Assembly (NCBI GenBank): GCA_002835545.1 | Contig: PIZK01000002.1 | Location: 1-64,000 of the forward strand | DNA from: Alteromonadales bacterium alter-6D02 | Lineage (GTDB): Bacteria > Pseudomonadota > Gammaproteobacteria > Enterobacterales > Psychrobiaceae | DNA length: 64,000 nucleotides | Direction: 5' to 3' | Part shown: positions 218 through 8,997 of the stretch, one piece after another | Layout of the letters: every line of letters begins with the position of its first letter | Numbering within the stretch: position 1 is the stretch's first letter | Program-made: the position numbers and the translations under genes | Notes under the pieces: generated by a model | Seen by the model: only the letters and a program-made list of their open reading frames with translations | What the model was told of the DNA's origin: nothing | Database searches by the model: none

Positions 218-724
218 ATGTTACGTTTTATATATCTTATTACTTTATTAGGTTTTTCCAGTATTTCTATTGCGAATGAAACCAAAGAGGTGAGTATTGC
301 AGAAAAGATACAAGAGTTGAAACAGCGAGCTGCTAGCCTGCATAAAGATTTAGATCGACTAGAACGGGATCTTCTATTTCCCTCTGCAACGCAAGTTGCT
401 GTATATGTAGCGTTAAACGAAAAAAAATCAGCGGTTATCGATACAATAGAGATCAGAATTAACGGTCAAAGTGTCAGTTCATTTGCATATAATGACAATC
501 AAAAATCTGCTTTATTAAAAGGTGGCAAACAGCGTCTCTATAACGGAAATATTGCACAGGGTGAATTCCAAGTGTCTGCTAAGGTTGAGGGCACAACAAA
601 TAGCCATCAATATAGCCTAATGAAGGAAAAGCGCTTTTATAAGAGTAAAGAGGCATTATCTCTAGAAGTCAGCGTTGCTCTTTCTAGTACTAATCAACCT
701 GTAATTACTTTAATTAAGTTATAA
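218..724 (+). CDS. Small exported protein, first gene of a TolQR/TPR envelope operon
   Basis: I do not recognise a named family. The 168-residue product starts with a hydrophobic signal peptide (about residues 1-20, ending near SIA-N), so it should be periplasmic. Residues about 27-52 are charged with a heptad-like pattern (IQELKQ...LDRLERDLL), suggesting a short coiled coil. The rest looks beta-rich and soluble. A strong purine-rich Shine-Dalgarno sequence (GAAAGGGG) lies just upstream of the ATG. Only two bases separate its stop from the next start, so it is co-transcribed and probably translationally linked with the giant TPR protein. Its place as first gene of a proton-driven envelope machine suggests a structural or adaptor role; that is inference from context only. 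Confidence 0.8.
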   Translation: MLRFIYLITLLGFSSISIANETKEVSIAEKIQELKQRAASLHKDLDRLERDLLFPSATQVAVYVALNEKKSAVIDTIEIRINGQSVSSFAYNDNQKSALLKGGKQRLYNGNIAQGEFQVSAKVEGTTNSHQYSLMKEKRFYKSKEALSLEVSVALSSTNQPVITLIKL

Positions 725-726
725 GT

Positions 727-3700
727 ATGAAGTCTAAATTAACCATACTTTTTTATTTGAGCTTTATATTCTTTAGTTGCTTACCTATTAATGTAGCAGC
801 TGAAAAGTCTTCTTCTGTTTCTGCGAATAACAAATACAGAGAAGTACTGTTTCATTATCATCAAAAAGATTATTTCAACGCTTTGGTAAAGCTAATGGAG
901 CTTGGTGATGCAAATGTCTCTTCTTTATCCATACCACTCAATGTTATCAAAACAGATATAGCACTTAATTTAGAGTTGTATCAACAGGTACGACCAAACC
1001 CGTCACCAGCGCTGCTTGCTCAAGTGGGAAGTGGAACTCGATTAACTACTGCGAAGACCTTATTTTCTTTAGGTGACCTTACAGCAGCAAACGCTTACCT
1101 ATCAAATGTGCCTTATAGAGAGTTAGAAGGTGAAGACTTACTTAAAATCTCCTTTTTACAAAAGTTGATCGCCGTTCAACAACAGCAAGAAGTATCACTA
1201 TTTCTCAATGATAAAGTTCAACCCAGCTTAGCGCTAAAAAATGCTTATTTATCTCATAATATTTTACTTAACAAAATAAAAAGTGGAGCACTAGTTGAAG
1301 CGGATTTATTCGTCCACGACAGTTTTCAGAGTAACTCTGTTGAGTATACCTTGTTAAAAGATCGTAGCTATCTTGTGATGATGAGTGAATTTTTTAATCG
1401 AGGAAAATATCTACTAGTAGAGACTGCGTTTAACAAGATTAGTCATGATTCGCTTCTACGTGAAAAAGCATTACTTATATTAGGTCAATCATTAGTTAAG
1501 CGAGGTCTGTATAGACAAGCGATTAGTATCTTTGAAACTGTTATTGATAAGGCTAGCTCAAGTTCGCAAGTTGAGCTCGCGTTAATCAATAAAGCTTTTG
1601 CGCTACAAAAAAGTGCTAACTATAAAAGTGCCATAGATTTTTATGAATCGGCTCTGCGGCTTTTATCCTCTCAAGAGAAAGCTCTAGCCAGCTGGGACTA
1701 TAATATTGAACAGGATCTTTTGTGTTTGAAGTCTGGCTGTGACAAGAATATTGAAGAGTTTTATATTGAATATTTTGCGAGTAATAGCCTTTTCAATGAC
1801 CTTAAGTCTCGCGAAGATATCTTATTTCTTGATCGGTTAGTATCGCGTCAATTAATACAATTAGAGTCTATTCATCAGATACAAAGGCAAAAGCAGTCAT
1901 ATACTTTCAGTAAATTAAGTGATGAGTCCCTTACGGAATTTAACAATCAGATTAATGAACTGATTGTCGTACGCAATGAGTTTACGACGCTAATTGAGGA
2001 CGCGCTTAATCGTCAATATGGATACTTTTTTCTGCCTCAAGTTTATTTAGAACATCAGGTGAAAATAAATCAAGCGTTTAAAGAAATGGTTCAGCTTAAG
2101 CGTGAAGGATTAAATATTACAGCATCAGAGAGCCGTCTTGATTTGATTCAACGGACAATTTGGTGGCTAAGCCAAGCTAATATTGAGCAACACGCGAATG
2201 AGGTACAACTTAAATTATCCCAATTAAACCAAGTTCTTGAACTGGTTGAATTAAGCCATAATCGTTTGCACTCACATTTGGACGATACTAAAAGAATAGA
2301 TCAGGATCTTGTTAAGCTGACACAGTTTAAGGAAGGGTTAGATGCTCAGCAGCAGGGAACTTCAGAGTTACAGCAAATTCTGGAGGCAAAGATTAAGCGA
2401 AGCTTTGGCCTTGTAAAACAACGTCGACTTACCGAAATAAAGGCAAGAACTGTGTCGTCAAAGCTGGCTTGGGTAAAGCTACAAGATTTCGCCTATCAGC
2501 AGTCGGTATTAGTTGAGGAGAGTAAAAGCTACGATAAGGTTTTGTCAGAGGTAGCTCCGTCATTACAGGAACTGATAAATCATTATCAGCAGTTGTTACC
2601 ATCCCTAGCTGATGGAGATGTAAAAGAGCTTGTGGAATATCGAACGTTAACGCTACTACTGACCAAAAATGAGCAAGAACAAGAAGTGGGTACAGCAATA
2701 AGAGCAGATAGTATGGGTTTTTATGATCAGTCAATCTCTGGGTTTAAATCGTTTTTGCAGCGTTATCCTCACAGTGAAAAAACAGAACACGCATTATATC
2801 AACTAGCCAGAGCTTATGAGTCACAAGGACAGGGTGAGGCTAGCTATCAAGTTATCGAGCAATTGCTACAGACGTACCCACAATCAGGCTACGCTCAAGA
2901 GTTGTTTTTTAGGGCGGGTGAATACTTGTTCGAAAATAATCAATTTGAGCAAGCAGCAACAGCATATCAGAATGTGGTAGCAATCAACGATGATGTAGTT
3001 TATTACCACACGTCGTTATACATGCTTGCTTGGTCTTATTTTAAATTAGAGAAGTTTGAATCATCGTTGCAAACCTTTTCGTTGTTATTGGATCAATTAT
3101 TACCGCAAGAGCAGCAAGATATTGAATTAGCAGCCCTCCCGGTTTCAGTGAGGCAATTAGTTACTGACTCTTTTAGGGTTATGAGTCTTATTTTTTCTGA
3201 ACAGTTTGGTCCGCGTAGTGTGACTAAACATTATCAGCAAGTTGGTAACCGTTATTATGAATACTTAAGTTATCAGAATTTAGCTAAAGCTTACCTAGAC
3301 CACAAACGCTATTCTGATAGTGCTGCTAGTTATGGCCAATTCATTCGTTTATATCCAGAACACCATAATTCTCCAGATTATTTGATTGAGCAAATAAACA
3401 TTTATCAGCAGGGTGGCTTTCAATCTTCCGTTAAGCAACAAAAGCAAGTGTTTATCAAGCTTTATGGTGGCAGAGGACCGTTCTGGTCGGTGTGGAGTAA
3501 AGAGCGTCAGGCCCTTTTCTCTGCTCAATTAAAGAGTTATTTACTTGATGTTGCCCAAAGTTATTATCGTGATGGGCAACGCGCAGATGAGCAAGGTAAA
3601 CAACGTCCTTATGCTCAGGCTGCAAGCTTTTTTGAACAATATATCGAAACTTTTAATGATGTTGACGAAGTGGAGTTTTTGTATGCAGAAAGCTTATTCG

Positions 3701-5247
3701 CTAGTGGCCAATTTCAACAAGCAATTACTGCATATAACCAATACGCCTATCATGATAACCCTCTGGTTGTTCGTCAAAAAGTAAAGCAAGCTGATGCGGC
3801 TTATTCAGAATTGTTGGCTTACGATAAGCTCATTAAGCAGACGGCTATGGCTGACCCATCATCGCAGACAGATATAGAAATGGGCAAGCAACAACGTGAA
3901 AACTCAGCATTACGTTTTATTGAACTATTTCCACAAGATGAACGTGCTCCGGTGGTGTTAACACAAGTGATGCAACGTAACTTTAAACTTGCTCGTTACT
4001 TAAAGTCACTTGAATACGCACAGCAATTATTAGGTTGGCCACATCACACGAGTGAAAATCAACTTGAGCAAGCAAAGCTAATATTAGCCCATAGCCTGTA
4101 TAACTTAGAACGCTACCAAGAAGCGGTTGTTGCCTATCAAGATATTTTACAGTTATTAAAACCAAGTGATCATCGATTATCGTTGATTAAAGAAAATTAT
4201 GCTGCCAGTTTGTTCAATCAAGCAGAACAGTTAGCGAATAAACAAGAGCTTGCTGCGAGTGTCAATTTATTACGTACGATCGTCACTGAAGTGCCTGATA
4301 CTAGTACTCGAAAGTTGGCGCAATATAATATGGCACAATACCTTTATAAACTGGGTGAGTTTACACAAGCAGGTAGTTATTTAGCAGATTTTAGAAAACG
4401 TTACGTTAATGACGTATTAACGCAAGGGATCACAGAACAGCTAGCAAGTATTTACGAGCAACAGCAGGATTGGGCGAATGCAGCCGCTGAGTACCTGACA
4501 ATTACGAATCGTTTATCTGATAAAGAATTACAACGTAAGCCGCTGTTGTTGACTGCAACTTACTTTGAACGAGCCAATCATACCGCTCAAGCAATCACAC
4601 TCTATAAGCGTTATGTTAATAATTACCCTCGACCATTCGATCGTGCGATTGAAACTGCTTATAAATTAAACTTGCTTTATAGAGACACCAAACAAGTAGC
4701 GAAAGCTCGCTTTTGGCAGAAGAAGTTAATGGCTTTACACGATAATGGTGGTGAATTCCAAACTCCGCGATCGACATATCTAGCGGCGGAAAGTTCTTTA
4801 GTATTTGCTAATCGTGCGCATAACCGCTTTAAACGACAAAAGTTAACTTTACCATTAAAGGCCAGTTTACGGGTTAAGCAACGGAGCTTAAAGGACACGA
4901 TGGCGAGTTATCAAAAAACAGCATCTTATCAAGTTGCTGAGTTTACAACGCAAGCGACCCATCAAATGGCGCAGGTCTATCGACGCTTTGCTCAAGACTT
5001 AATGGATTCTCAGCGTCCAACAGGCTTGGATGAGTTAGCGCTGGAGCAGTATGAAATACTTTTGGAAGAGCAAGCATTTCCATTTGAAGATCAAGCGATT
5101 GCTGTTTTTGAAGGGAATACTCACTTAACGGCGCAAGGGCATTATGATGCATGGATTAAGCGTAGCTTTGCCGCATTAGCTGAGCTGATGCCTGGACGTT
5201 ATAACAAAGAAGAAGCGTTAGCTGAGGACGATGATGCAATCTATTAA
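727..5247 (+). CDS. Giant periplasmic TPR-repeat protein (GltD/AgmU-like by context)
   Basis: The 1506-residue product has a signal peptide (residues 1-25, ending at VAA-E) and no later membrane span, so it should be periplasmic. TPR-like helical pairs are clear at residues about 240-310, 665-800 (motifs such as FLQRYPHSEKTEHALYQLA and AYESQGQGEASYQV), 850-900 and 1105-1290. Residues about 480-610 are rich in Gln, Glu and Leu and probably coiled coil. Tetratricopeptide repeats of this YbgF-like type act as scaffolds for protein contacts. The gene sits between a small exported protein and a TPR lipoprotein, upstream of tolQ/exbD genes. Position and architecture recall the very large TPR protein of the Myxococcus Glt apparatus, but sequence homology was not tested. 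It overlaps the next gene by 17 bp. Confidence 0.85.
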   Translation: MKSKLTILFYLSFIFFSCLPINVAAEKSSSVSANNKYREVLFHYHQKDYFNALVKLMELGDANVSSLSIPLNVIKTDIALNLELYQQVRPNPSPALLAQVGSGTRLTTAKTLFSLGDLTAANAYLSNVPYRELEGEDLLKISFLQKLIAVQQQQEVSLFLNDKVQPSLALKNAYLSHNILLNKIKSGALVEADLFVHDSFQSNSVEYTLLKDRSYLVMMSEFFNRGKYLLVETAFNKISHDSLLREKALLILGQSLVKRGLYRQAISIFETVIDKASSSSQVELALINKAFALQKSANYKSAIDFYESALRLLSSQEKALASWDYNIEQDLLCLKSGCDKNIEEFYIEYFASNSLFNDLKSREDILFLDRLVSRQLIQLESIHQIQRQKQSYTFSKLSDESLTEFNNQINELIVVRNEFTTLIEDALNRQYGYFFLPQVYLEHQVKINQAFKEMVQLKREGLNITASESRLDLIQRTIWWLSQANIEQHANEVQLKLSQLNQVLELVELSHNRLHSHLDDTKRIDQDLVKLTQFKEGLDAQQQGTSELQQILEAKIKRSFGLVKQRRLTEIKARTVSSKLAWVKLQDFAYQQSVLVEESKSYDKVLSEVAPSLQELINHYQQLLPSLADGDVKELVEYRTLTLLLTKNEQEQEVGTAIRADSMGFYDQSISGFKSFLQRYPHSEKTEHALYQLARAYESQGQGEASYQVIEQLLQTYPQSGYAQELFFRAGEYLFENNQFEQAATAYQNVVAINDDVVYYHTSLYMLAWSYFKLEKFESSLQTFSLLLDQLLPQEQQDIELAALPVSVRQLVTDSFRVMSLIFSEQFGPRSVTKHYQQVGNRYYEYLSYQNLAKAYLDHKRYSDSAASYGQFIRLYPEHHNSPDYLIEQINIYQQGGFQSSVKQQKQVFIKLYGGRGPFWSVWSKERQALFSAQLKSYLLDVAQSYYRDGQRADEQGKQRPYAQAASFFEQYIETFNDVDEVEFLYAESLFASGQFQQAITAYNQYAYHDNPLVVRQKVKQADAAYSELLAYDKLIKQTAMADPSSQTDIEMGKQQRENSALRFIELFPQDERAPVVLTQVMQRNFKLARYLKSLEYAQQLLGWPHHTSENQLEQAKLILAHSLYNLERYQEAVVAYQDILQLLKPSDHRLSLIKENYAASLFNQAEQLANKQELAASVNLLRTIVTEVPDTSTRKLAQYNMAQYLYKLGEFTQAGSYLADFRKRYVNDVLTQGITEQLASIYEQQQDWANAAAEYLTITNRLSDKELQRKPLLLTATYFERANHTAQAITLYKRYVNNYPRPFDRAIETAYKLNLLYRDTKQVAKARFWQKKLMALHDNGGEFQTPRSTYLAAESSLVFANRAHNRFKRQKLTLPLKASLRVKQRSLKDTMASYQKTASYQVAEFTTQATHQMAQVYRRFAQDLMDSQRPTGLDELALEQYEILLEEQAFPFEDQAIAVFEGNTHLTAQGHYDAWIKRSFAALAELMPGRYNKEEALAEDDDAIY

Positions 5248-5971
5248 AAAATATACCTGTATTAGTTTAATTAGCTGCACTCTAATATTGTCGGGCTGTC
5301 AAACGGCTCCAGTCTTTGATGAGCAAACAAACAAAGTCAATGTCACTAAAGTTAAGCCTACACCTCCTGAAGAGGAGTTGATTGAGCCTGTTGTTGAAGA
5401 AAAGACGCTATCAAAAGCTCAGCATTTATTTGAGCAGCCTAATTTGTATTTAGTCAATAACCCCCCTGTGGCTGACGAGATCAAAGATCGTTTTGCTCAA
5501 GTTGTTACACTCATCAAACGTGATGAATTAACTCGGGCAAAGACAATCTTAGAAGAAATGACTTTGCAATCCCCAATGTTATCAGGACTCTGGTTAAAGT
5601 TAGGGGATATTGCGCGAATGAAGCGAGAGCAATCTTTAGCTCAACAACATTACTCGCGAGCGATTAGTTTAAACTCTAATAATTACTTTGCCCGTAACCG
5701 CTTAGCGGCTATTTATCGTCAGCAAGGTGAGTTTGAATTGTCGAAAGAGCAATATACAAAAGCATTAATGAGTTGGCCTGGCTTTGTTGAAGGTCATCGA
5801 AACTTAGGTATCTTACTGGACCTCTATTTAGGTCAAAAAGAGCAAGCGTTAGAGCATTATCAGATAGCTCAGGAGTTATTGACTTTAAATAATAAGAAAG
5901 TCGACCGAAAGCTCAAAGGCTGGATCAGAGACTTAACGCGGCAATTAGCAAAAACTGAGAAGGTAAAGTAA
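5231..5971 (+). CDS. TPR-containing outer-membrane lipoprotein
   Basis: The 246-residue product carries a lipoprotein signal ending in the lipobox LILSGC, with Cys23 as the lipidated residue. Gln at +2 predicts outer-membrane sorting by the Lol rule. Residues about 85-210 form three to four TPR units (for example LWLKLGDIARMKREQSLAQ and RLAAIYRQQGEFELSKEQY). The start overlaps the end of the giant TPR gene by 17 bp, and the second ATG of the ATGATG pair would serve equally well. It is probably the outer-membrane anchor of the TolQ/ExbD-powered system downstream, analogous in position to the TPR lipoprotein GltE/AglT of Myxococcus. That functional link is inferred. Confidence 0.85.
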   Translation: MMQSIKKYTCISLISCTLILSGCQTAPVFDEQTNKVNVTKVKPTPPEEELIEPVVEEKTLSKAQHLFEQPNLYLVNNPPVADEIKDRFAQVVTLIKRDELTRAKTILEEMTLQSPMLSGLWLKLGDIARMKREQSLAQQHYSRAISLNSNNYFARNRLAAIYRQQGEFELSKEQYTKALMSWPGFVEGHRNLGILLDLYLGQKEQALEHYQIAQELLTLNNKKVDRKLKGWIRDLTRQLAKTEKVK

Positions 5972-5974
5972 ACA

Positions 5975-6280
5975 ATGAGTTTAGTTGATCGAGCAAAGCC
6001 TGTAATGGCTCTATATTTGTTATTATCATTGACAGGTAATGTCGTTGCCGCAGAAAAGGTTAAGACACTAACCCCAGAAATCATCACGATCGAAACTACT
6101 ATTGTAGGCTCGAAAGAGAAACCTAAGTTTTTAACCATTGTACCCTGGCGGGTACAAGATGATAGTCGGTTAGGGCTGGCTAAAAAGCAGTATCAAAGCA
6201 AAGAAAAATTTAATTCGATTGGGCCAGCAGAGCTTCAAAGGCAGCAAAGGCTCTATCAACAATTACAACGCAGTAAGTAA
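5975..6280 (+). CDS. Small exported protein in the TolQR/TPR operon
   Basis: This 101-residue protein has an N-terminal hydrophobic segment (about residues 9-26, ending VVAA-E) that looks like a cleavable signal peptide, followed by a charged soluble tail rich in Lys, Gln and Arg. I do not recognise a family. It begins three bases after the stop of the TPR lipoprotein, so it belongs to the same operon. A 43-bp gap then precedes the tolQ-like gene. The short palindrome in that gap (6282-6291) has no room for a loop and is not a convincing terminator. Function unknown; it is probably a periplasmic accessory subunit of the complex. Confidence 0.7.
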   Translation: MSLVDRAKPVMALYLLLSLTGNVVAAEKVKTLTPEIITIETTIVGSKEKPKFLTIVPWRVQDDSRLGLAKKQYQSKEKFNSIGPAELQRQQRLYQQLQRSK

Positions 6281-6323
6281 CGCCATATGGCATTTTTTTC
6301 ATATTTATTCTAGGTGAAAGGTA

Positions 6324-6989
6324 ATGGATTTTTACACAACAGTTATTCGCTTTTTTCAAGATGGTGGTGCATTCATGCTGCCTATTTCTATCGTTTTAGC
6401 AATTGGGTTGGCTATTGCGATAGAAAGAATGTTGTTTTTAAGTAAGGCAAATAAAGCGAACAAGCAAGCATTACAGCATATTCAGCCGCTACTTAATCAA
6501 GAAAATTATAGCGAAATTGTTCAATATGCTAAAACAAATAAATCTGCAATAGCTAATTTAATTGCGGCTGGTCTTGAGCGCTTAGCAATCAGTAAACGCC
6601 GTGAAGATATCGAATACGCGATGGAAGAGAGCGTAGTTGAAGTAATGCCTAGGCTCGAAAAAAGAACTGCATATTTAGCGACATTAGCCAATATTGCAAC
6701 GTTGCTCGGTTTGTTAGGAACCATTATTGGTCTAATTGCAGCCTTCTCTGCAGTGGCTAACGCGGATCCTTCAGAGAAAGCGTCGTTATTATCACAAAGT
6801 ATCTCTGTCGCGATGAACACGACAGCATTTGGCTTGATTGCAGCTATACCACTGTTACTTTGTCATTCAGTTATTCAAACTAAAACTACGGAAGTTATCG
6901 ATTCGATGGAAGCTGCTGGTGTGAAGTGTTTAAACCTTTTATCAGTAAGACATAGCATAGGTAATCAAGACAACAACTCGGACAGTTAA
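6324..6989 (+). CDS. TolQ/ExbB/MotA-family proton-channel protein
   Basis: The 221-residue product has the standard three-span topology of TolQ/ExbB proteins: a first span at about residues 18-38, a cytoplasmic loop, and two further spans at about 115-140 and 160-183. The signature segments LLGLLGTIIGLIAAF and the Thr-containing ISVAMNTTAFGLIAAIP are those that line the ion path with ExbD/TolR. Length matches ExbB/TolQ. AAAGG lies just upstream of the ATG. Family members form a pentamer around an ExbD/TolR dimer in the inner membrane and convert the proton-motive force into motion. Two exbD-type genes follow immediately, as in Myxococcus aglR-aglQ-aglS. Confidence 0.93.
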   Translation: MDFYTTVIRFFQDGGAFMLPISIVLAIGLAIAIERMLFLSKANKANKQALQHIQPLLNQENYSEIVQYAKTNKSAIANLIAAGLERLAISKRREDIEYAMEESVVEVMPRLEKRTAYLATLANIATLLGLLGTIIGLIAAFSAVANADPSEKASLLSQSISVAMNTTAFGLIAAIPLLLCHSVIQTKTTEVIDSMEAAGVKCLNLLSVRHSIGNQDNNSDS

Positions 6990-6990
6990 T

Positions 6991-7503
6991 ATGTTTAGAA
7001 AATCTAGCCGTAAGCGCGAAGAGCCTGAACTAGACATCACGTCATTTATGAGTCTAATGATTGTACTTGTCCCTGTTTTACTGATGATGATGGTCTTCTC
7101 TCATATCAGTATCCTAGAGCTAAAATTACCCAGTGGATCAGGTGGGGCATCAGAACAAACTGAGGAAGTTAAGCGTCTTGAACTGTTAGTTGAAGAGGAT
7201 GCTTTGTCTTTGTTTTACCCTCAGGGCGTTTTATTAAAAACTTTGCCCAAAAAGCAAGGGCAGCATGACTATGCCACTTTAGTGCAGGCACTCAAAGAGG
7301 TTAAATTTCTTTTAAATGAAAAAGGCATTGAGAAGAAAGACATTAATCTTTTAATTGCTCCTGACATTAATTATCAGACGATTGTTTCAGTGATGGACTC
7401 GGTTCGTTCATATCAAGCCGTTGTGGCTGCTTCTGTTGTTGATGCTGAACTATTTCCTGATATTTCATTATCTGATGCGCCAGTATTTACGGAGGCTCAG
7501 TAA
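6991..7503 (+). CDS. ExbD/TolR-family protein lacking the membrane aspartate
   Basis: The 170-residue product has one N-terminal membrane span (about residues 18-38) and a periplasmic domain, as in ExbD/TolR. The motif before the span reads LDITSFMSLM. In typical ExbD/TolR proteins the equivalent motif is close to LDITPLIDVV, and its last Asp carries protons. Here Ser21 occupies that place, so this copy probably cannot conduct protons itself; the early Asp15 is retained. The gene starts one base after the tolQ-like stop, and its stop overlaps the next start (TAATG). The likely arrangement is a heterodimer with the second ExbD protein inside the channel. Confidence 0.9.
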   Translation: MFRKSSRKREEPELDITSFMSLMIVLVPVLLMMMVFSHISILELKLPSGSGGASEQTEEVKRLELLVEEDALSLFYPQGVLLKTLPKKQGQHDYATLVQALKEVKFLLNEKGIEKKDINLLIAPDINYQTIVSVMDSVRSYQAVVAASVVDAELFPDISLSDAPVFTEAQ

Positions 7504-8024
7504 TGAAGAAATCAGCACGAGCTATGCGTATTGAAAGGCACCATAAGAGAATGTCTAAAACCTCGAAGCTAAGTTTAGTATCATTAATGGATATCTTTAC
7601 GATCTTAGTATTCTTTCTCATTGTGAATTCATCAACGGTGGAAGTGCTGCAAGCTGATAAGAGTATCAAGTTGCCGCAATCGGTGTCGAAAACATTAGCT
7701 GAGGATAACCTGCTGTTATTGATTAATGATCAGGAGTTAATCCTACAGGGTAAAAAAGTTGTTGATATCGAACAGGTGATTGCAGGTAATACTGCAACTA
7801 TTGCCGAGCTAGCGTCAGAACTTGAATACCATAAACAGCGCCAACAGGGGCCTGACACTGAAGACGCTAGTATTACTATTATGGGTGATCAAGCGGTAGA
7901 GTATGCCATTTTGAAGAAGGTTCTTAAAACTTGCTCTGAAGCTGGCTTTGGTAATATCTCATTGGCGGTTGAAAAAACGGCTGCTAACAATGAGGGGGTG
8001 AATAATGCCAAAGCCAACCCATAA
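7503..8024 (+). CDS. ExbD/TolR-family protein with intact membrane aspartate
   Basis: This 173-residue protein has a basic cytoplasmic N-terminus, one membrane span (about residues 28-46) and a periplasmic domain of about 120 residues. The span begins LVSLMDIFTILVF; Asp30 matches the proton-carrying Asp of ExbD/TolR. It therefore keeps the residue that the preceding paralogue has lost. The start overlaps the previous stop by one base, and the 3' end overlaps the next gene by 20 bp, so translation of the three genes is coupled. Expected role: proton-coupled stator partner of the TolQ-like protein in the inner membrane. Confidence 0.92.
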   Translation: MKKSARAMRIERHHKRMSKTSKLSLVSLMDIFTILVFFLIVNSSTVEVLQADKSIKLPQSVSKTLAEDNLLLLINDQELILQGKKVVDIEQVIAGNTATIAELASELEYHKQRQQGPDTEDASITIMGDQAVEYAILKKVLKTCSEAGFGNISLAVEKTAANNEGVNNAKANP

Positions 8025-8943
8025 TCGCTTGGCTGTAGGCTTCCATCTGAGCAACGAAGCTGAGCGCGAGAATGCTCAATTTCGTAAAATTACATGGTTC
8101 TTGTTATTAACGACGTTAGTATTTGCTGTTGTGGTGCAGCTGACAGCATTACCAGAAGTCACACGTGAAGAAAAAGCTAAGATACCTGCTCAGTTGACGA
8201 AGTTTATTGAACGAGTAAAACTTGAAGAGAAGCCTAAGCCAGAGCCAAAACCAGAGCCAGAAAAGGAAGAGGTTATCAAAGAAGATGAGCCTGAACCGAC
8301 GGCAAAGCCACAAGATGTCGATCCTGTTAAGCTTGAGCAGGCGAGGGAGCAGGCTAAAAATAGTGGAATTCTAGCCATGGCTGATGAGCTAGCAGCCATG
8401 AGAGATGAAGTGGCACTCGTCTTGCCACAGGCTCAGTCGTTAACTACTGACGTTGCCGCGGCAGCGCCAGAAGAAGTTAAGAATGATGCTATATTTGAGG
8501 CTAAAACGGCAACATTAAACACAGAGCAGTTGGTGCAGTCCACAGCCGAGACTGTGGCTTTAGCACAGCGGGACCTGACAGTCATAGCCGGTAATACATC
8601 TGATGAAGTGGTCGTAGAACAAGCTGACTCGGATGTAGTATCAACGCTAACGTCTAAGCGAAAAACTGAAATTATTCGTCAGGTGTTAGATAAAAATAAA
8701 GGGGCATTTTATACGATTTATCGTCGAGCATTACGCCGTGACCCATCATTAGAAGGGAAGGTTACGATGCAAATTAGCGTTGCCGGCAACGGTCGTGTGT
8801 CAGCTTGTGAGATTGTTGAAAGTGAATTGGATAGTCCTGCGTTAGAGAAAAAACTCATCGCTCGAGTGAAGTTAATCAATTTCGGCTCAGAGCTTGGAAC
8901 GCCAACGACATTAAACTATTCATTTAACTTCTTACCATTTTAG
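8005..8943 (+). CDS. TonB-like protein with AgmX/PglI-type C-terminal domain
   Basis: The 312-residue product has a single membrane span near residues 29-48, followed by a Pro/Glu/Lys-rich stretch (KPEPKPEPEKEE, about residues 73-105) typical of TonB-like periplasm-spanning linkers. A variable middle leads to a C-terminal domain (about 215-310). The pattern RRDPSLEGKVTMQISVAGNG, then ACEIVESE and a final Phe-rich strand, matches the AgmX/PglI C-terminal domain of myxobacterial motility proteins, a relative of the TonB C-terminus. A GGGGG Shine-Dalgarno sequence lies inside the preceding exbD gene. It is the last gene before a strong terminator. Expected role: transmit force from the TolQ/ExbD motor to periplasmic or outer-membrane TPR partners. 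Confidence 0.88.
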   Translation: MPKPTHNRLAVGFHLSNEAERENAQFRKITWFLLLTTLVFAVVVQLTALPEVTREEKAKIPAQLTKFIERVKLEEKPKPEPKPEPEKEEVIKEDEPEPTAKPQDVDPVKLEQAREQAKNSGILAMADELAAMRDEVALVLPQAQSLTTDVAAAAPEEVKNDAIFEAKTATLNTEQLVQSTAETVALAQRDLTVIAGNTSDEVVVEQADSDVVSTLTSKRKTEIIRQVLDKNKGAFYTIYRRALRRDPSLEGKVTMQISVAGNGRVSACEIVESELDSPALEKKLIARVKLINFGSELGTPTTLNYSFNFLPF

Positions 8944-8960
8944 CTGCGCTATATGAGAGA

Positions 8961-8997
8961 AACGCCGCCATAAGTAATCATTTATGGCGGCGTTTTT
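8961..8997 (+). terminator. Rho-independent terminator of the TolQR/TPR operon
   Basis: AACGCCGCCATAA (8961-8973) pairs with TTATGGCGGCGTT (8982-8994) across an 8-base loop, with a run of T after the stem. It ends the 218-8943 operon. On the minus strand it could partly serve nagR, but the T-run there is poor. Confidence 0.93.

What the first reader, a model, noticed from the sequence alone, without database searches (positions are those of the whole stretch)
218..8943. Eight-gene TolQR-TPR-AgmX operon resembling the ancestral core of the Myxococcus gliding motor
Seen: signal-peptide protein, 1506-residue TPR protein, TPR lipoprotein, small exported protein, TolQ/ExbB protein, two ExbD proteins and a Pro-rich TonB-like protein with an AgmX/PglI-type C-terminus, all overlapping or nearly so and closed by one terminator. 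Known: Myxococcus gliding uses AglR-AglQ-AglS plus Glt proteins including giant TPR, TPR lipoprotein and AgmX-type proteins; phylogenomic work proposed an older core of unknown function. Inferred: this is such a core, a proton-driven envelope-spanning machine with unknown output in a marine gammaproteobacterium. It is the best candidate here for an undescribed system.
Basis: partly seen in the sequence, partly recalled or inferred. Interest (0 to 1): 0.75.

Follow-up and report, generated by a model that had tools for sequence, protein, structure and literature searches.

The report
Proton-driven envelope machine, redox-linked
These eight genes are a marine bacterium's copy of the proton-powered envelope machine from which the Myxococcus gliding motor is thought to have evolved, and in many related bacteria such genes sit beside genes for haem and redox proteins of the cell envelope, which gives a testable clue to the machine's unknown job.

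Summary
The eight-gene operon is real. It fits the gltCDEG-aglRQS "core complex" published in 2011 (PMC3169522), so the gene set is described; its function is not. The 1506-residue protein is a GltC-GltD fusion; genus-mates encode the two separately.

New here: in 274 sampled gammaproteobacterial genomes, GltD-type proteins (63 genomes) co-occur strongly with an envelope redox/barrel module: a paralogous pair of OMP_myx_plus barrels, DUF3570, DUF4266, a TlpA-type thioredoxin, often ApbE, and haem lipoproteins. The barrel profile hits 42 genomes, all 42 with GltD. The common order is cytochrome-barrels-thioredoxin-DUF4266-DUF3570-(ApbE)-P1-C-D-E-P4-R-Q-S-G.

The window's genome carries this module, without ApbE, on another contig with second copies of P1, GltC, GltD and P4 but no motor; its only AglR-type motor is in the window. 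Against a simple link, three genus-mates have the motor operon but no barrel hit.

Best reading: a proton-driven, TonB-like force machine acting on outer-membrane clients, in many lineages a redox complex. The output is inferred, not shown. One of the two ExbD-like subunits lacks the motor aspartate in all 54 readable copies. Separately, R-Q-S-G alone lies in type VI secretion clusters of six genomes.

The parts
218..724 (+). P1: exported 168-aa protein; signal peptide, helix 27-53, then an eight-strand beta sandwich
   Evidence: ORF; AlphaFold2 model mean pLDDT 87.6; no PDB match at E<=0.001; a P1 relative found in 69 of 75 fetched GltD-bearing loci
727..5247 (+). GltC-GltD fusion, 1506 aa, TPR scaffold (residues ~1-600 GltC part, ~608-1500 GltD part)
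   Evidence: TPR families; relatives are mostly two separate proteins; fused in 4, split in 67, no GltC recognised in 4 of 75 loci
5231..5971 (+). GltE-like TPR lipoprotein, 246 aa
   Evidence: TPR, lipobox LSGC; GltE model hits 24 of 25 scanned but PilW and Tgl models hit all 25, so the name rests on position
5975..6280 (+). P4: small exported protein, 101 aa
   Evidence: ORF; no family; a P4 relative found in 65 of 75 fetched GltD-bearing loci
6324..6989 (+). AglR: TolQ/ExbB-type proton-channel subunit, 221 aa
   Evidence: MotA_ExbB 101.6 bits; clade apart from own-genome TolQ/ExbB proteins
6991..7503 (+). AglQ/S-type ExbD-like subunit 1, 170 aa, without the membrane Asp (Ser21 there)
   Evidence: ExbD 43.5 bits; N or S at this column in 54 of 55 rows, 1 unreadable
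7503..8024 (+). AglQ/S-type ExbD-like subunit 2, 173 aa, with the membrane Asp (Asp30)
   Evidence: ExbD 69.7 bits; Asp in 50 of 53 rows by pattern, the other 3 read as Asp by eye
8005..8943 (+). GltG-like force transducer, 312 aa: membrane helix 18-46, Pro-rich linker, TonB/TolA-fold C-terminal domain
   Evidence: AgmX/PglI tail 66.3 bits, GltG 48.7 bits (below that model's cut-off of 650); model and PDB fold matches to TonB-family C-terminal domains
8958..8997 (+). terminator-like hairpin closing the operon

Best explanation
The operon encodes a proton-driven, envelope-spanning force machine, the gammaproteobacterial core complex. AglR with a mixed pair of ExbD-like subunits, only one of which has the usual proton-binding Asp, works the TonB-like protein GltG. 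GltG reaches through the periplasm and acts on a TPR scaffold (GltC-GltD, GltE, with P1 and P4) attached to the outer membrane. Its clients are outer-membrane complexes. In many lineages the client is a redox complex: a GltA/GltB-like pair of barrels, DUF3570, thioredoxin, DUF4266 and haem lipoproteins. In this organism the single motor probably serves two scaffold sets, its own and the one beside the redox module on contig C35. Shown: gene content, order, family assignments, co-occurrence. Inferred: physical coupling, motor sharing, the place of the redox proteins at the cell surface, and the output, for which the most likely guess is placing or working haem- and thiol-containing proteins there.
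For: Family and fold assignments. The GltD part is found in 63 of 274 class genomes, DUF3570 in 71, both in 53 (Fisher p 1e-30, relatedness of genomes ignored); 32 of 98 DUF3570 rows lie within 30 kb of a GltD gene on the same contig, 22 of them on the same strand at 2.2-4.2 kb. The barrel profile A3 hits 42 of 274 genomes, all 42 with GltD, and 15 of 118 genomes of the order, all 15 with AglR. Gene order is conserved over many loci. Own genome: C35 holds the module with P1', GltC', GltD' and P4', then a tRNA-Ser and the contig end, no motor; one AglR hit in the genome. A combined locus of the same order (G139) groups with the window, C35, L009 and L010 in the GltD tree (99; flagged there as a long branch of unsure place). 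In M. xanthus, GltA and GltB are paralogous outer-membrane barrels that bind GltC (PMC4488436, passages).
Against: Three genus-mates (G289, G314, G352) have the motor operon but no barrel hit, and two (G334, G369) have neither; the genomes of L009 and L010 gave no barrel hit. 19 of 63 GltD genomes have none of the three module markers at the cut-offs used, though one locus of the order sample (L119) shows that the cut-offs miss divergent versions. 18 of 71 DUF3570 genomes have no GltD. The C35 set lacks GltE. The DUF3570 flavin site reads SGAS in only 7 of 28 rows and SSAS in the own-genome copy; ApbE is not adjacent there. No experiment.
Confidence: 0.6

Rival explanations
1. The window operon serves a client other than the redox module, as its genus-mates suggest; the C35 set is a separate, possibly decaying or differently powered remnant of an ancestral combined locus.
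For: Three genus-mates with AglR but no barrel hit; L009 and L010 genomes without a barrel hit; no motor beside the C35 set.
Against: The C35 genes read as open frames of usual length, with motifs kept: cytochrome frame of 889 codons with a lipobox and two CxxCH, DUF4266 ending in GGGCGCN; in the class sample the barrel occurs only in genomes with GltD.
Confidence: 0.35
2. A gliding or surface-motility machine like that of Myxococcus.
For: Homology of the transducer, and likely of the motor, to Agl/Glt proteins.
Against: [quoted passage not shown] Of Glt models only GltE, GltG and GltJ hit the eight proteins, GltJ through the shared tail; whether models of the other Glt proteins exist in that library was not checked.
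Confidence: 0.07
3. An ordinary ExbB-ExbD-TonB2 nutrient-uptake system with extra genes.
For: ExbB, ExbD and TonB-fold parts.
Against: AglR clade is separate from the genome's own ExbB/TolQ proteins; constant company of TPR scaffold genes.
Confidence: 0.03

Closest known systems
Core complex gltC,D,E,G-aglR,Q,S of Gammaproteobacteria and others (Luciano et al. 2011, PMC3169522)
   Same: Same seven kinds of gene in one cluster, plus extra gene(s); function unknown
   Different: GltC and GltD fused here; second copies of P1, GltC, GltD and P4 beside a redox module elsewhere in the genome. The 2011 paper reports gltA and gltB only from Myxococcales and Bdellovibrionales (passage); here a pair of barrels of the OMP_myx_plus kind accompanies the core in many gammaproteobacteria (whether they are GltA/GltB was not tested)
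Myxococcus xanthus gliding machinery (AglRQS-Glt)
   Same: TolQ/ExbD-type motor, TonB-like GltG, TPR proteins; barrels next to GltC
   Different: No further Glt protein recognised in the operon; one ExbD-like subunit lacks the membrane Asp, whereas a review (PMC9389320, passages) says that AglQ and AglS are predicted to have it
ApbE-DUF3570-DUF4266-thioredoxin clusters (Meheust et al. 2021, PMC8238504)
   Same: Same protein families in the C35 module and in combined loci
   Different: That paper's main text does not hold the words gliding, TPR, ExbB, TolQ or motor (its supplement was not readable); the motor-linked DUF3570s are a divergent group with a mostly altered flavin site
TPR-TolQ-TolR-TolR-vWA clusters of the PVC group (PMC12204202, passages)
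   Same: TPR gene, TolQ-like gene, two different TolR-like genes and a membrane-tethered transducer in one cluster
   Different: Transducer has a vWA domain instead of a TonB fold; no comparison of sequences was made here
Tol-Pal and ExbBD-TonB
   Same: Motor type and TonB/TolA fold of the transducer
   Different: Separate AglR clade, two unlike ExbD proteins, TPR scaffold

Membership tests
2011 core complex | gltC, gltD, gltE, gltG, aglR, aglQ, aglS in one cluster | tested here: met
   GltC, GltD and GltE are named by features and gene order, not by comparison with M. xanthus proteins
2011 core complex | GltG: membrane helix, Pro-rich linker, TonB-like AgmX/PglI C-terminus | tested here: met
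2011 core complex | GltE TPR lipoprotein of the GltE family | tested here: inconclusive
   TPR and lipobox present; GltE model not more specific than PilW or Tgl models
2011 core complex | additional gene without Myxococcus homologue | tested here: inconclusive
   P1 and P4 are both conserved extras; the paper's Figure S1 was not available to say which is meant, and no Myxococcus genome was searched
2011 core complex | GltD, GltE, GltG, GltC, AglRQS group with M. xanthus sequences in trees | not testable with these tools
   no Myxococcus genome reached
M. xanthus gliding machinery | group A genes gltA, B, F, H, I, J, K | tested here: inconclusive
   GltJ model hits only through the shared tail; OMP_myx_plus barrels found on C35; the others not searched genome-wide
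ExbB-ExbD-TonB2 uptake system | motor groups with ExbB/TolQ of such systems | tested here: not met
ApbE-flavinylated DUF3570 system (own-genome C35 module) | [S/T]GA[S/T] flavin site in DUF3570 and ApbE next to it | tested here: not met
   SSAS at the site; the two ApbE genes lie on C8 and C43

The most novel reading that the evidence does not exclude
The ancestor of the Myxococcus gliding motor was a proton-driven outer-membrane machine that installs or mechanically works a surface redox complex (haem lipoproteins, thiol proteins and barrels), with AglRQS-GltG as a separable power pack that has also been recruited by type VI secretion systems.
Probability: 0.25. Interest if true: 0.88.

Novelty: new variant of a known kind. 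Interest (0 to 1): 0.64.

Why it matters
The job of the core from which the gliding motor is thought to have evolved was left open in 2011, and my searches found no later answer. The tight company of a barrel pair, DUF3570, thioredoxin and haem lipoproteins turns that question into specific experiments. The loss of the motor Asp in one of the two ExbD-like subunits in all 54 readable copies predicts a mixed axle with one proton site; whether AglQ and AglS form mixed or like pairs is stated as unknown in a 2022 review (PMC9389320, passages).

Tried and rejected
Considered that C35 and C12 are adjacent, so that the motor would follow the C35 set: no end overlap was found, and the tRNA-Ser after P4' suggests that the set ends there. 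The contig ends 340 bases after P4', so this is not proven.

Expected flavinylation of DUF3570 to be a constant feature; the site is altered in most motor-linked copies.

Expected P1 to match a known fold: nothing at E<=0.001. PDB sequence searches with the GltC-GltD fusion gave only short TPR matches, with GltG nothing useful. The TonB fold of GltG's end rests on best Foldseek E-values of 0.007 and above, but 23 of the first 24 hits are TonB/TolA-type domains.

Limits of the counts. The threshold of 160 bits that separates divergent from typical DUF3570 was set after seeing the scores; with all DUF3570 the association is 53 both, 10 GltD only, 18 DUF3570 only, 193 neither. The barrel profile A3 was built from barrels found beside GltD, so it may favour such copies; the Pfam DUF3570 model has no such bias. 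Fisher's test ignores kinship among genomes. Rows dropped before counting: GltD rows under 60 bits (148 of 274 genomes had some match at E<=0.001; the rows dropped score under 34 bits and are short TPR hits or separate matches to the GltC part) and DUF3570 rows under 39 bits. The 75 fetched GltD-bearing loci were chosen partly because DUF3570 was near, and some stop at contig or fetch ends, so their tallies are not frequencies; L009 and L118 are probably one locus (same contig number and length, identical AglR), so genus-mate G314 and L009 are not independent. Model scans took 17 (GltG, of 23 copies and the window), 21 (OMPmyx, of 27), 21 (SH3 barrel, of 24) and 25 (GltE, of 34 and the window) rows. 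In the GltD tree two rows (L083, L100) are labelled motorless only because the fetched stretch ended before the motor, and the tree is a quick one without bootstrap.

Literature searches for a link between this core and redox modules, flavinylation or T6SS listed no paper that reports it (listings, with passages read in PMC3169522, PMC12204202, PMC8238504, PMC9120999, PMC9389320, PMC4488436 and PMC5566968). Only open-licence full texts were searched; supplementary files could not be read, and the supplement of PMC8238504 lists neighbours of DUF3570 genes.

Full report
What is there. Eight ORFs in tight succession at 218-8943 encode, in order: P1 (exported, helix plus beta sandwich), a 1506-aa TPR protein, a TPR lipoprotein, P4 (small, exported), an ExbB/TolQ-type protein, two ExbD-type proteins and a Pro-rich protein with an AgmX/PglI tail. 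A long hairpin with a T run closes the operon. The window begins at the first base of a contig.

What the long protein is. Searching 274 genomes of the class with it, the strong relatives match residues ~610-1497, mostly as proteins of about 950 aa; in some genomes a separate upstream protein matches part of the first ~600 residues weakly. In 75 fetched GltD-bearing loci GltC and GltD are fused in 4, split in 67, and no GltC was recognised in 4. The three genus-mates with the operon have them split (in L117 the GltD part is itself in two frames). So it is GltC joined to GltD.

Membership. The content matches the core complex of the 2011 study, which reported gltC, D, E, G and aglR, Q, S clustered in several Gammaproteobacteria with an additional gene and with unknown function (PMC3169522; abstract, passages and two sections read). 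GltG identity is well supported (17 of 17 scanned hit the GltG and AgmX/PglI models), and its C-terminal domain has the TonB/TolA fold. AglR-type proteins form a clade apart from the seven other ExbB/TolQ-family proteins of this genome. The GltE name rests on position and features only. I could not reach Myxococcus sequences.

The company it keeps. Neighbour genes of the first 22 loci fell into recurring families, identified by Pfam and NCBIfam: a lipoprotein with a hydrazine-synthase-alpha-like middle domain and 2-3 CxxCH motifs (a lipobox-like motif in 17 of 19 long frames), an SH3-plus-barrel protein, an OMP_myx_plus barrel (161 bits, cut-off 60), a TlpA/ResA-type thioredoxin, DUF4266, DUF3570 and often ApbE. 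The two barrels are paralogues (hhalign 97.8%, E 9e-13), and all 21 scanned of each hit the OMP_myx_plus model, the SH3 one weakly. This recalls GltB and GltA, paralogous outer-membrane barrels that bind GltC (PMC4488436, passages); whether they are the same proteins was not tested. In 21 of the 75 loci the barrel, DUF3570 and AglR all lie within the fetched stretch (loci chosen partly for this). Five loci (L079-L083) add a three-gene group: a DUF1585-like protein with CxxCH, a LamG lipoprotein with CxxCH, and a Tat-signal protein T3 of no Pfam family; the group also occurs in the own genome (L084) and, whole or in part, in further loci.

How strong the association is. DUF3570 (Pfam model): 71 of 274 genomes; GltD: 63; both 53, p 1e-30. 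The divergent DUF3570 group: 45 genomes, 42 with GltD. 32 of 98 DUF3570 rows lie within 30 kb of GltD on the same contig. Barrel profile: 42 of 274 genomes, all 42 with GltD. T3: 35 of 274, 33 with GltD. GltD falls in 41 GTDB families, GltD plus barrel in 28. AglR (E<=1e-40): 60 of 274 genomes, all with GltD; the three GltD genomes without AglR are assemblies of 440 to 780 contigs. Order sample: barrel in 15 of 118, AglR in 21 of 118, all 15 among the 21 (G000, G139 and G252 are in both samples). In a sample of 378 genomes of the phylum AglR was found in 14, all of them in the same class.

The own genome. Contig C35 carries the three-gene group, the cytochrome (889-codon frame with lipobox and two CxxCH), both barrels, thioredoxin, DUF4266, DUF3570 and second copies of P1, GltC, GltD and P4, then a tRNA-Ser; no GltE, AglR, Q, S or G before the contig end, and no ApbE. 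The only AglR of the genome is in the window. In the class, 60 of 81 GltD places have AglR within 4 kb downstream; 21 do not, and 12 of those have DUF3570 within 30 kb; some of the 21 lie at contig ends. Ten genomes have two GltD places and one AglR. In the GltD tree the window, C35, L009 and L010 copies form one clade (100), next to the combined locus of G139 of the same order (99; a long branch whose place the program calls unsure). An ancestral combined locus that split in two, keeping one motor, is the simplest reading.

Results against a simple redox story. Of five other sampled genomes of the genus, three have the motor operon and none has a barrel hit. The L009 and L010 genomes gave none (G314 is probably the L009 genome). 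19 of 63 GltD genomes show none of the three module markers, and 18 of 71 DUF3570 genomes lack GltD. So the motor operon can be kept without the module, while the barrel and the divergent DUF3570 are hardly ever found without the core. The motor therefore probably has other clients too, and in this genus perhaps chiefly others. The DUF3570 flavin site is altered in most copies (7 of 28 SGAS, 13 SSAS).

The motor. At the column where ExbD/TolR carry the proton-binding Asp (that role is recalled; by the coordinates both proteins put this residue at Pfam profile position 15 if no gap intervenes), the first ExbD-like protein has Asn or Ser in 54 of 55 rows (one unreadable), and the second has Asp in 50 of 53 by pattern, the other three read as Asp by eye. 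This differs from what a review states for M. xanthus AglQ and AglS (PMC9389320, passages; [quoted passage not shown]

A side finding. R-Q-S-G without GltC/D/E follows TssM-TagF-PppA-PpkA of a type VI secretion cluster in six genomes (L120, L136-L140; in two of them a small ORF of about 90 codons lies between; neighbours named by Pfam in L120 and by BLAST to L120 in the others; in L137 the S gene was not picked up as a separate ORF). Their AglR proteins form one clade inside the AglR family (100/100). The motor plus transducer is thus a separable unit.

How it most likely works. Proton flow through AglR and the mixed ExbD-like pair moves GltG; GltG's TonB-type domain engages the TPR scaffold or an outer-membrane partner; force reaches barrels and attached proteins. 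Parts and company are shown; force transfer and output are inferred. My preferred output is placing or working cofactor-bearing proteins at the cell surface; the thioredoxin, DUF4266 and haem proteins fit this but do not prove it.

Verdict. A member of a known but unexplained kind, in a variant form (GltC-GltD fusion, split locus). The new value lies in the redox-module association, the barrel pair and the type VI link, which together make the old question testable.

Noticed in passing
L120:8205-10963; also L136, L137, L138, L139, L140: AglR-Q-S-GltG cassette without GltC/D/E after TssM-TagF-PppA-PpkA of type VI secretion clusters in six genomes; their AglRs form one clade. The one literature search made for such a motor in a T6SS locus listed no report of it.
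   Followed up: partly
L056:2-2176, L064:3-2690, L065:1363-4836: Very large multihaem proteins with 21, 36 and 45 CxxCH motifs beside or downstream of the core genes; the first two are cut by the end of the fetched stretch or contig.
   Followed up: partly
L084:1505-3118 (own contig C35) and relatives: T3: Tat-signal protein of about 540 aa, 65% mean column identity over eight rows, no Pfam family in the three copies scanned at E up to 5; in 35 of 274 genomes, 33 with GltD (G001 and G034 without).
   Followed up: partly
L045:14454-15104, L054:3813-4511, L066:2755-3387, L067:18084-18716: A PDZ protein follows GltG in four loci (PDZ by Pfam in the two scanned); its layout recalled GspC of type II secretion to me, untested.
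   Followed up: no
L117:3586-4305: In genus-mate G352 a thioredoxin-like gene lies just upstream of P1; the window contig starts too late to show whether the same holds here.
   Followed up: no
L141, L142 (G056:C7, G193:C132): R-Q-S-G stands apart from the other core genes, while P1-C-D-E-P4, barrel, DUF3570 and a giant multihaem gene lie on another contig (L064, L065).
   Followed up: partly
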